A program made the position numbers and the translations under genes. Shown one piece after another: positions 2,489-28,468 of a stretch of 64,000 nucleotides of DNA. The notes under the pieces are model-generated. The model worked only from the letters and a program-made list of their open reading frames with translations, did no database searches and was not told the DNA's origin. The stretch covers positions 1 through 64,000 of the forward strand of contig JAAANX010000033.1 of assembly GCA_009909085.1 (NCBI GenBank), in the 5' to 3' direction. The DNA comes from Cyanobacteria bacterium GSL.Bin1 (GTDB lineage: Bacteria > Cyanobacteriota > Cyanobacteriia > Cyanobacteriales > Rubidibacteraceae). Positions within the stretch are counted from its first letter, which is position 1; every line of letters starts with the position of its first letter.

Positions 2489-3721
2489 ATGTATTTTAGC
2501 GGTTCAGTTTACCATTCTCAGCATACTCTGTTTTCTCGGTTAATTTTTCCTTGTGCTCAAGTTAAAAAGCTCCTGCAAAGGGTTTATGATTTTATATTAC
2601 AAAGCATTTGGACTGAGCTAATTTCCGGGAAGACTATCAAAAATGAGGTTGCGAACCTCGTTTTATTTTTTATTTTCTGTTTATTTTCCATTGCATTTTT
2701 CCACTTACAAACCTATCGAGGAATTCTGCTAGTTTTATTTTTTAGTTTGTGGCTGATAGATCGCGCGATCGCGCAGAAGTATTATCAAAAAGGCAGCAGT
2801 AAATATCCCGTTTCTCTCCACATTACTGAGAATAAACTTTATTTCAAAGAATATTTACCTAAAAATCAAACTATTGATTTAGAATTTAACCGTGAACAAA
2901 TTAAAGAAAGCGCGATCGTTTCCCGTACCCTTTACAGTGATGGCTTTCAAGCAGAGATTAAGCAATGTTGGCAAGTTCTCCTTTTTTTGCAAGACGGTAC
3001 CGAAATTCTAGTCGATGAACAACCTAAGCCAGAAAAAGCACTCAGTAAAGCCAAAAAATTAGCAACCCAATTAGAGATTCCGATTATTTTATTAGAGAGT
3101 GAAGGGAATCATTCTTACGCAACACATGAGTTATCCCCGATTGCAACAGCAAACTCGAATACGATTCAAATTGAGTTACAAAATCAGCAATATCATATTT
3201 ATTCGCAATGGCGACTGCAAGATAGTTGGCAACTATTGAAGCAAATTTTAGTCCAGTCAGGTTTTCTCCTATTTGTCATCATTAGTACAAACTTTATGGT
3301 TCGATGGGGTGGTTTTTTAAATGCGGTTTTTATCCCTTTTTTTAACCAACAGCAAACCACTATTTATTTACCGAGTATATGGGAAATATTACGTTTTAAT
3401 TTAGATATAGAAAGCTATTTTGAAATTGGTCTAGCCGTTGGCATTATCATATTTCAAGGCGCAAAAATTAGTCGTACCCAACACATTTATCTCGATCAGT
3501 CCTTGCTTAAATATTATGTAGGTCATCAGAAACAAGAGCAATTAAAGACAGCAGATATTGAAGCCATTATTTTAATTCCAGAACCTAATTTAATGGTGTT
3601 AATTGTTGCTAATCGTCAAGCCCTAATGATCGAGCATTTACCTACCCCTGACGCCTATCGAAAAATGGTAGAAAAAATTGAATTTGCCCTTAATCAGCAA
3701 TCAGTGAAGAGTCATCCTTGA
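2489..3721 (+). CDS. Hypothetical membrane protein, 410 aa
   Basis: I do not recognise a family. Two hydrophobic segments near residues 52-90 (NLVLFFIFCLFSIAFF, then ILLVLFFSLWLI) and another near 250-275 suggest three or four membrane spans, with PH-domain-like soluble stretches between and after them (ISRTQHIYLDQSLLKYYVG and IEAIILIPEPNLMVLIV near the C-terminus). The ATG at 2489 lies right after an 11-bp hairpin that contains the only good Shine-Dalgarno, which is odd. The last 21 bp overlap the 3' end of rnhB on the other strand. Confidence 0.75.
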   Translation: MYFSGSVYHSQHTLFSRLIFPCAQVKKLLQRVYDFILQSIWTELISGKTIKNEVANLVLFFIFCLFSIAFFHLQTYRGILLVLFFSLWLIDRAIAQKYYQKGSSKYPVSLHITENKLYFKEYLPKNQTIDLEFNREQIKESAIVSRTLYSDGFQAEIKQCWQVLLFLQDGTEILVDEQPKPEKALSKAKKLATQLEIPIILLESEGNHSYATHELSPIATANSNTIQIELQNQQYHIYSQWRLQDSWQLLKQILVQSGFLLFVIISTNFMVRWGGFLNAVFIPFFNQQQTTIYLPSIWEILRFNLDIESYFEIGLAVGIIIFQGAKISRTQHIYLDQSLLKYYVGHQKQEQLKTADIEAIILIPEPNLMVLIVANRQALMIEHLPTPDAYRKMVEKIEFALNQQSVKSHP

Positions 3722-4333
3722 CTGATTCTGACAAGGACGAAAAGAGAGACGATGTTGCGGAGACGGACCATATTCTTGTAGCGCAAGACGATGGGCTGCT
3801 GTTCCATATCCCTTGTTGGTTATTAGATGATACTGAGGATATTGGTTGCCCCAAAGACGGACAATCAGGTCATCGCGCCAGACTTTTGCGATAATACTCG
3901 CAGCACCAATGGCGCGCGATCGCGCATCTCCTTGTTTTAAAGTTACCTGCGACAGCTTTAAGCCGGGGACTGGAAACCGACCATCCACAAAGCAGAGATC
4001 CGGTTGCGGGGTTAACTTTTGTACCGCCCGTCGCATCGCTTGTAGAGAGGCTTGTAAGATATTAATCTCATCAATTTCTTTGGCGGTGGCGTAGCCAATG
4101 CGGACATCACTAACAACCGTTTTAATTTGTTGGGCTAACTCTTCTCGCCGTTTGGCAGAAAGTTTTTTACTATCTTTTGCGGCAATTTCGTTTAACTGCG
4201 ATAGTTCTGCAACGGAGATAACCACTGCTGCTGCAACTACAGGACCAAATAATGCGCCTCTTCCCACTTCATCTACTCCTGCAACCAAAGTTGAGGGGTG
4301 CATTTTGGCAAGCGTCTGTGCTTCGAGATTCAT
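3701..4333 (-). CDS. rnhB: Ribonuclease HII
   Basis: Cuts the RNA strand of RNA/DNA hybrids and removes single misincorporated ribonucleotides. Its 210 aa match the type 2 RNase H length. The N-terminal motif VAGVDEVGRGALFGPVVAAAVV supplies the Asp-Glu metal ligands and GRG, followed by DSKKLS, CFVDGRFPVPG and SIIAKVWRD. The start is taken at the first ATG; an internal ATG ten residues later (MHPSTLVAGV) is also possible. It is convergent with the upstream membrane-protein gene, and the two 3' ends overlap by 21 bp. Confidence 0.96.
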   Translation of the reverse strand: MNLEAQTLAKMHPSTLVAGVDEVGRGALFGPVVAAAVVISVAELSQLNEIAAKDSKKLSAKRREELAQQIKTVVSDVRIGYATAKEIDEINILQASLQAMRRAVQKLTPQPDLCFVDGRFPVPGLKLSQVTLKQGDARSRAIGAASIIAKVWRDDLIVRLWGNQYPQYHLITNKGYGTAAHRLALQEYGPSPQHRLSFRPCQNQSRMTLH

Positions 4334-26780: not shown

Positions 26781-26960
26781 GTATCCTAAAACTCGGAATA
26801 AGATTCAGTTTGATTTCTTTTTATAGGATATTAGTTGAGTGTTCATCGGTAAAATTTTAAGACGAGTCAGAATCAAATCTGCTTGCACTTGTTTTCGTGG
26901 CGATTAGTGTTAAGCTCAGTGATAAAAATCATGCTCAAAAATTAAAGGAGAGAAATAAAA

Positions 26961-28049
26961 ATGATTGGTGCTATCGTAGGTGCTCTCGTAGGTCTAATTA
27001 TTGGTGGTGTCGGAGTTCTCTTGTTTATGAGAGATCAAATCACACAACTCAAAGAGAACCATCAAAAAAAGCTAGAACAGCAAAAGAAACAATTAGAACA
27101 AGAACATCAAAAGCGAATTGAGGAAACAACCCAACGCTTACAGCAAGATTACCAAGCGCGAACGCAAGAACAAATTGATGAGCAGATTGAACAAGAAATT
27201 GCTGCCGCCCGAGAAAATGCCCAAGCCGAGTTAGAACAACTCCGTCAGCAACTAGAAGAGACGCGTCAAGAACTAATAGCCCAACAAAATTATCAAGCTC
27301 AGGTAGAAGAGTTACAAAATGAACTGCAACGTACCAACGCCCACTATCAACAACAAATGGAAGCGTTGGAACAAGAAAAAGAAAGCGCGATCGCGCAAAC
27401 AAGAAGCGAATATGAAGAGCGGCTTGAACAACTGAACCAAGAACTTGCTTCAGCGCAAGAGAAGCTTGCTCAAGTTGAAGCGACCAGTGCAAACACCACT
27501 GAATCGGTAGAACCCAAAACTCAGTTTGCCTTTGAAGAACCGGAAACCACTTTTAGTCCCCAAGAGACAGAAGTTAGGGAAGAAGTAACCAGTTTTCAAG
27601 AGGTAGACACGAACTTGAGTGCAGAGTCAGCTAGCACCGCGAGTCCAACAGAGGAAGCAACAGCAACTGATGAATTTGATGAGCTGTTTGATGACGAACT
27701 GAGTACCAGTTCTGCAACCGCAGAATCAGCCACAACCAGTCAGCAAGAATTAGATGAATTCTTTTTGGATGATGAAGAAGAATTCAATACAGTAACCAGC
27801 AATGAAACTCAAGCTTTTGATGATGACGAATTTGATGCTTTCTTTGCTGATGTTAAGGAAACAGCAACCCCTGCTAACGGCACTGCCAGTCAAAGTGAGG
27901 AAGATGAATTAGAAGAGTTAGACGCTTTGTTTTCTGATGATGAAACAGCAAAGGATCAATCTCAAACTCAACAAAAAAGTACAGCTGATGAGGAATTAGA
28001 TAGCCTCTTTGATCTCTTTGATGAAGATGAAGCAAAAAAAAACGTGTAG
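26961..28049 (+). CDS. Membrane-anchored acidic coiled-coil protein, 362 aa
   Basis: I do not recognise a named family. A glycine-rich membrane segment at residues 2-23 is followed by a long Gln/Glu/Lys coiled coil (about 25-175) and an acidic tail with repeated DELF/DEFF/DDEEFN blocks (about 220-358). A clear ribosome site (AAAGGAG) precedes the ATG. The gene ends at TAG 28047-28049, just after GCA-AAA-AAA-AAC. The tract A-AAA-AAC (28037-28043) is in the phase of a classic -1 slippery site, and a -1 shift enters the frame of the HEAT gene. So the true product may be a 502-aa fusion. Confidence 0.75.
   Translation: MIGAIVGALVGLIIGGVGVLLFMRDQITQLKENHQKKLEQQKKQLEQEHQKRIEETTQRLQQDYQARTQEQIDEQIEQEIAAARENAQAELEQLRQQLEETRQELIAQQNYQAQVEELQNELQRTNAHYQQQMEALEQEKESAIAQTRSEYEERLEQLNQELASAQEKLAQVEATSANTTESVEPKTQFAFEEPETTFSPQETEVREEVTSFQEVDTNLSAESASTASPTEEATATDEFDELFDDELSTSSATAESATTSQQELDEFFLDDEEEFNTVTSNETQAFDDDEFDAFFADVKETATPANGTASQSEEDELEELDALFSDDETAKDQSQTQQKSTADEELDSLFDLFDEDEAKKNV
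28037..28043 (+). promoter_or_regulatory. Candidate -1 ribosomal frameshift site A-AAA-AAC
   Basis: The run of nine A (28034-28042) ends in C. In the reading frame of the upstream gene the codons are AAA-AAA-AAC, so A-AAA-AAC sits in the correct phase for tandem -1 slippage. The -1 frame is open from 28043 through the HEAT gene to 28468, reading R-V-V-E-Q-L-M-A-W, where the Met is the annotated ATG. I saw no strong stimulatory stem downstream. Transcriptional slippage or a genuine indel are alternatives. Confidence 0.45.
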
Positions 28050-28060
28050 TTGAGCAATTA

Positions 28061-28468
28061 ATGGCTTGGGGAAATGAAGAGAAGACGACAATTATTCCTC
28101 AAGTCGAAGCTTATGCTTGGGATGAAGATGAACGGGTTCGCGCTGGTGTTGCACTTACTTTTGGTCAATTGATTGCCGAAAAAACAGTCGATGATCAGGT
28201 AGAACAAGCGCTTCAGCAGTTAGGAAACCTCAGCTGCGATCGCGCGCCCTTAGTTCGCCAATGTGCCGTTCAATCTCTCGGCAAAATTCGTTCCGAAGCC
28301 GTCATTCCTTTCTTAACTCGCGCCTTACAAGATGCAGATCTTGACGTTGTGGCCAGTGCCAGTGCTATCTTAAACAACTACAAAACCGATCCCGGGCCTT
28401 CTGCCACTGCTTCCGAACCCACCCTACCGGAAAACAGCGCCCTAAAAGCGCAAAACCAATCACTTTAA
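28061..28468 (+). CDS. HEAT-repeat protein (possibly the C-terminal part of a frameshift fusion)
   Basis: 135 aa with about three HEAT-like helical repeats: ERVRAGVALTFGQL, LVRQCAVQSLGKI and DVVASASAILNNY, ending in a Ser/Pro tail. HEAT repeats serve protein-protein contacts; no partner is known. The ATG has no good Shine-Dalgarno, and the frame stays open for six codons upstream (RVVEQL), residues that look like the start of the first helix. That suggests the protein is normally longer at its N-terminus and joined to the gene ending 12 bp upstream. Confidence 0.75.
   Translation: MAWGNEEKTTIIPQVEAYAWDEDERVRAGVALTFGQLIAEKTVDDQVEQALQQLGNLSCDRAPLVRQCAVQSLGKIRSEAVIPFLTRALQDADLDVVASASAILNNYKTDPGPSATASEPTLPENSALKAQNQSL

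What the first reader, a model, noticed from the sequence alone, without database searches (positions are those of the whole stretch)
28034..28468. Coiled-coil gene and HEAT gene joined by a textbook -1 slippery heptamer
Seen directly: the 362-aa gene ends in GCA-AAA-AAA-AAC-GTG-TAG, and A-AAA-AAC is in the phase needed for -1 slippage. The -1 frame continues without a stop for 141 codons through the HEAT gene, whose own ATG lacks a good ribosome site, and the residues before that ATG look like part of the first HEAT helix. A shift would give a membrane-anchored, acidic coiled-coil protein of 502 aa with a HEAT tail beside the short form. Known: A-AAA-AAC/G sites serve programmed frameshifting, and runs of nine A also allow transcriptional slippage. 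An indel in this strain or a base-count error in the A run is the plain alternative.
Basis: partly seen in the sequence, partly recalled or inferred. Interest (0 to 1): 0.75.

Follow-up and report, generated by a model that had tools for sequence, protein, structure and literature searches.

The report
Gene joined by a poly-A slip
A cyanobacterial membrane protein gene is interrupted by a run of about nine A's in every related species that carries both of its halves, and the second half is still preserved as working protein, so the cell very probably makes a short and a long version by letting its copying machinery slip on the run.

Summary
A run of exactly nine A (28034-28042) ends a 362-aa membrane/acidic coiled-coil ORF, and an open -1 frame encodes a HEAT domain. 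The two ORFs are one ancestral gene. About 54 relatives from the same order carry membrane segment, coiled coil and HEAT tail as one uninterrupted ORF. In this genus all four genomes that hold the HEAT part are broken at the same place by A9, A8, A9 or A10. HEAT remains under purifying selection (dN/dS about 0.2-0.26). Its ATG is private to this genome; the other three have no start codon for at least 42 codons. Sequencing error and decay are therefore unlikely.

The 'textbook -1 heptamer' is only partly right. Three genomes have A_AAA_AAC/G in -1 phase, but the A8 genome needs the other shift, and no usual ribosomal stimulator is evident. RNA polymerase slippage on the A run explains all four. 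The same gene is broken independently at a poly-C run in Roseofilum (HEAT dN/dS 0.03-0.16) and at an A9 run in a third genus, where a 99.7% identical relative has A10 and is in frame. DNA-level phase switching thus remains open. No transcript or protein was measured. This is a new instance of known recoding, unusual for arising repeatedly in one gene family.

The parts
26961..28049 (+). Zero-frame ORF, 362 aa: N-terminal membrane segment, long coiled coil, acidic tail with repeated D/E-L-D-x-L-F motifs; the short product
   Evidence: Pfam YtxH-like and ZapG-like hits are below cut-off
26945..26951 (+). Approximate position of the AAGGAGA ribosome-binding site of the coiled-coil ORF, conserved in the other three genus members
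   Evidence: seen in sequence
28034..28042 (+). A9 run, the proposed slippage site (8, 9 and 10 A in G001, G004 and G002)
28037..28043 (+). A_AAA_AAC heptamer in the phase for -1 slippage
28047..28049 (+). Zero-frame stop TAG just after the run
28043..28468 (+). -1 frame continuation, 141 codons plus stop: HEAT domain, fused in relatives
   Evidence: Pfam HEAT_2 1.3e-13; dN/dS 0.21-0.26
28061..28063 (+). Private in-frame ATG of the HEAT ORF, not a conserved start
28062..28107 (+). Predicted 12-bp stem-loop (TGGCTTGGGGAA / TTCCTCAAGTCG) starting 19 nt after the run; maximal pairing in all four genus members, role unknown

Best explanation
This is one ancestral gene for a membrane-anchored coiled-coil protein with a C-terminal HEAT tail. 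In this genus its frame is broken at an A8-A10 run between the acidic region and the HEAT domain. Reading the DNA-templated frame stops just after the run and gives the short protein (362 aa). The HEAT tail is reached only by slippage at the run. RNA polymerase adds one A (A10 mRNA) or, in the A8 species, drops one or adds two; ordinary translation of those mRNAs gives the 502-aa long protein. Ribosomal -1 slippage on A_AAA_AAC/G may add to this in three of the four species. Shown by sequence: one gene, a genus-wide frame break at the run, selection on HEAT, and no conserved start. Inferred: that slippage occurs, that it is mainly transcriptional, and that both forms are used.
For: Fifty-four relatives in the same order carry the parts as one ORF, apart from one cut by a contig end, including same-family G006 and G008. 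Nearly all of the further relatives in other orders also show long single frames. All four genus members with HEAT are broken at the same column by A9, A8, A9 and A10. HEAT dN/dS is 0.21-0.26 where dS is measurable, with most differences at codon position 3. The first HEAT-frame start codon is at codon 53, 75 or 43 in the other three genomes, so independent initiation would lose much of the domain. The required shift is not always -1: G001 with A8 needs +1 or -2, which RNA polymerase slippage accounts for and a -1 heptamer does not. Published precedents: A9 runs are efficient slippage sites, and 8 As appear productive in Nostoc 7120 IS elements (PMC1088944); C. rodentium tssM1 uses an A11 run before a stop to make two needed length variants of a membrane protein (PMC4256274). 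Two further lineages show the same arrangement (tree needs three changes).
Against: No RNA, ribosome-profiling or peptide evidence exists here. Eight of nine out-of-frame alleles need the -1 direction, which -1 ribosomal slippage also predicts; the A8 count in G001 could be a sequencing error. DNA-level run changes are seen in a related genus (A10 vs A9 in 99.7% identical loci), so phase switching is possible. Same-genus G003 shows no gene, and the G005 contig ends inside the coiled coil.
Confidence: 0.62

Rival explanations
1. Programmed -1 ribosomal frameshifting on A_AAA_AAC/G makes the long form.
For: The heptamer is in the correct phase in G000, G004 (AAC) and G002 (AAG); eight of nine out-of-frame alleles across three genera are in the -1 configuration.
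Against: G001 needs +1/-2. No upstream Shine-Dalgarno-like element is visible. The conserved stem starts 19 nt after the run, beyond the usual 5-9 nt spacer (general knowledge). In Roseofilum the run is poly-C.
Confidence: 0.2
2. Phase variation: replication slippage changes the run length in DNA, switching the HEAT tail on and off between cells.
For: Homopolymers of 8-10 A or C are typical switch tracts. G180 (A10, in frame) and G167 (A9, out of frame) are 99.7% identical over 2649 nt, with the run as the only gap. One Roseofilum-genus genome with C8 is in frame.
Against: All four genomes of the window's genus and four of five in Roseofilum are out of frame, with 8 of 9 out-of-frame alleles in the same -1 phase. 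HEAT stays under purifying selection in out-of-frame genomes. None of these counts excludes it statistically.
Confidence: 0.13
3. Pseudogene or sequencing artefact: HEAT is a decaying remnant or the run is miscounted.
For: Homopolymers are error-prone; G129 has a clearly damaged copy.
Against: Four genus members from separate assemblies are all out of frame, and HEAT is free of stops with dN/dS 0.21-0.26. Roseofilum HEAT dN/dS is 0.03-0.16.
Confidence: 0.03
4. Two separate genes, HEAT translated from its own ATG or by termination-reinitiation.
For: The window has an ATG 11 nt after the upstream stop codon.
Against: The ATG is absent in the other three species, whose next start lies 42 or more codons on; the residues before it are conserved and fused in relatives; no Shine-Dalgarno-like sequence.
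Confidence: 0.02

Closest known systems
Citrobacter rodentium tssM1 transcriptional frameshifting (PMC4256274)
   Same: Membrane protein gene stopped just after a poly-A run; slippage restores a C-terminal domain; short and long forms
   Different: Different, unrelated gene; A11 rather than A8-A10; experimentally shown there, only inferred here
Thermus thermophilus dnaX transcriptional slippage (described in PMC1088944)
   Same: A9 run, two length variants from one gene
   Different: In dnaX the templated frame gives the long form and slippage the short one; here the reverse
E. coli dnaX -1 ribosomal frameshifting (general knowledge; PMC5009743)
   Same: A_AAA_AAG/C-type heptamer in -1 phase
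   Different: No Shine-Dalgarno-like stimulator or properly spaced stem-loop seen here; one species has the wrong phase for it
IS elements of Nostoc sp. PCC 7120 and Deinococcus with A8/A9 runs (PMC1088944)
   Same: Includes a cyanobacterial case of A8/A9 runs proposed to fuse ORFs
   Different: Transposable-element genes, not a chromosomal structural gene

Membership tests
Programmed transcriptional slippage genes | A/T run of about nine at the frame junction | tested here: met
   A9, A8, A9, A10 in four genomes
Programmed transcriptional slippage genes | Downstream frame conserved as protein and lacking its own start | tested here: met
   dN/dS 0.21-0.26; no conserved start
Programmed transcriptional slippage genes | Transcripts of heterogeneous run length | not testable with these tools
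   no RNA data available
Programmed -1 ribosomal frameshifting | X_XXY_YYZ heptamer in phase in all members | tested here: not met
   met in G000, G004, G002; G001 requires +1/-2
Programmed -1 ribosomal frameshifting | Stimulator: upstream Shine-Dalgarno or downstream structure at 5-9 nt | tested here: inconclusive
   no Shine-Dalgarno-like sequence seen; conserved stem only at 19 nt
Phase-variable contingency loci | Run length varies between close relatives at DNA level | tested here: inconclusive
   A10/A9 in 99.7% identical loci of another genus; no strain pairs of the window's species available
HEAT-repeat proteins | Match to HEAT profiles above curated cut-off | tested here: met
   PF13646 51.5 bits vs 27.7; PF02985 39.2 vs 23.5
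ZapG / YtxH-like membrane proteins | Match above curated cut-off | tested here: not met
   PF06295 16.7 vs 33.5; PF12732 21.6 vs 37.5

The most novel reading that the evidence does not exclude
A cyanobacterial protein family has repeatedly, about three times and with either poly-A or poly-C, placed a homopolymer at the coiled-coil/HEAT junction so that cells make HEAT-tailed and tailless forms in a slippage-set ratio. Because the run is also mutable in DNA, the ratio itself would be heritably tunable.
Probability: 0.35. Interest if true: 0.75.

Novelty: new member of a known kind. Interest (0 to 1): 0.58.

Why it matters
Few chromosomal bacterial genes are known to use RNA-polymerase slippage to make two products, and in cyanobacteria the cases found here in the literature concern insertion elements. 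This one can be tested by cDNA sequencing in culturable strains. It also shows repeated evolution of a slippery tract at one domain boundary, which makes it a natural experiment for separating transcriptional slippage, ribosomal slippage and phase variation. Automatic annotation would list the halves as two genes or a pseudogene.

Tried and rejected
Independent HEAT gene: no conserved start. Pseudogene or single-strain error: rejected by four genomes and dN/dS. A pure -1 heptamer: G001 has the wrong phase. A downstream structure as a ribosomal stimulator: a 12-bp stem is predicted in all four. Total folding energy is not unusual once codons are shuffled synonymously, except in G001. Pairing in that stem is at its maximum in each of the four (p 0.04-0.05 each) and average in most fused relatives, but it lies 19 nt from the run, most of its pairs follow from the amino acids, and the test was post hoc; I did not use it as support. 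The single-sequence AlphaFold model of HEAT was poor (mean pLDDT 56.6); it draws a helix across the ATG but with pLDDT about 40.

Full report
Observation. The sequence is as described. The run is A9 at 28034-28042, the coiled-coil ORF is 26961-28049, and the -1 frame is open to 28468. Other homopolymers of seven or eight bases in this window lie inside uninterrupted ORFs, at ORF edges or outside long ORFs. In the window's genome, runs of nine or more A or T number at most 76 in 4.8 Mb. Of 30 such runs sampled from five genomes, only this locus joins two long same-strand ORFs.

One gene. The HEAT part was used to search whole genomes. In the genus, G001, G004 and G002 carry it next to the same membrane/coiled-coil ORF, beside the same divergent amidase gene. 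In the rest of the order 54 relatives carry membrane segment, coiled coil, linker and HEAT as one open frame, apart from one cut by a contig end. Nearly all of those in other orders also show long single frames, though these were not read one by one. The fused form is therefore most likely ancestral. Same-family G007 has a syntenic ortholog with no HEAT at all, so a tailless form can stand alone.

The break. At the same alignment column G000, G001, G004 and G002 have A9, A8, A9 and A10, and in all of them HEAT is out of frame. HEAT nevertheless evolves as protein: dN/dS is 0.21-0.26 among G000, G001 and G004, and synonymous sites are saturated against G002. The window's HEAT ATG is absent elsewhere; the first possible starts in the other three lie at codons 53, 75 and 43. 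The residues between run and ATG are conserved. HEAT must therefore be reached through the run, as part of the long protein.

Mechanism. In G000, G004 and G002 a -1 ribosomal shift or one extra A in the mRNA would join the frames. In G001 the join needs a lost A or two extra A. RNA-polymerase slippage, which produces mixed run lengths, accounts for all four; a -1 heptamer accounts for three. Literature supports slippage at A9 and probably A8 in bacteria, including Nostoc IS elements (PMC1088944), and gives a close parallel in tssM1 of C. rodentium (PMC4256274). GeneTack (PMC3711429) does not mention HEAT or coiled-coil proteins in its main text. These are inferences; no expression data were available.

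Convergence. HEAT dN/dS among the four broken ones is 0.03-0.16. In another genus of that family, G167 has A9 and is broken while G180 has A10 and is in frame; the two loci are 99.7% identical over 2649 nt and the run is the only gap. A tree of 63 HEAT domains needs three changes of state, even on well-supported branches only. This supports repeated origin, and it also shows that run length changes in DNA (or in the assemblies), so phase variation cannot be dismissed.

Function. Pfam and NCBIfam give only below-cut-off resemblance of the N-terminus to YtxH, ZapG and the ssl2009 thylakoid protein. HEAT is well supported. I infer a membrane-anchored scaffold in which HEAT is a protein-binding tail, so that the ratio of tailed to tailless forms would set how much partner is recruited. 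This last step is untested.

Verdict. The textbook ribosomal-heptamer reading is the weaker of the two slippage mechanisms. It is a new instance of a known kind, made more interesting by its repeated evolution.

Noticed in passing
window 28062-28107; L098, L099, L100 equivalents: A 12-bp stem (WG...IPQ codons) is at maximal pairing in all four genus members, with two compensatory synonymous changes, but not in most fused relatives; role unknown.
   Followed up: partly
L144 (G007): Same-family syntenic ortholog ends after the acidic motif and has no HEAT domain.
   Followed up: partly
L099 (G004), about 3046-4272 on the minus strand: A partial tandem copy of the coiled-coil gene start, with amidase fragments between the copies.
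   Followed up: no
L087, L088, L089, L092 (Roseofilum genus): The same gene is broken at a poly-C run, with HEAT under strong purifying selection.
   Followed up: yes
L076 / L077 (G180 / G167): 99.7% identical loci whose only gap is A10 versus A9 at the junction.
   Followed up: yes
G004:C1:2247106-2248489: A9 runs recur about every 343 bases, suggesting a tandem repeat array.
   Followed up: no
L157 (G298): A short gene with the HEAT domain but no coiled coil, apparently with its own start; no homopolymer run.
   Followed up: partly
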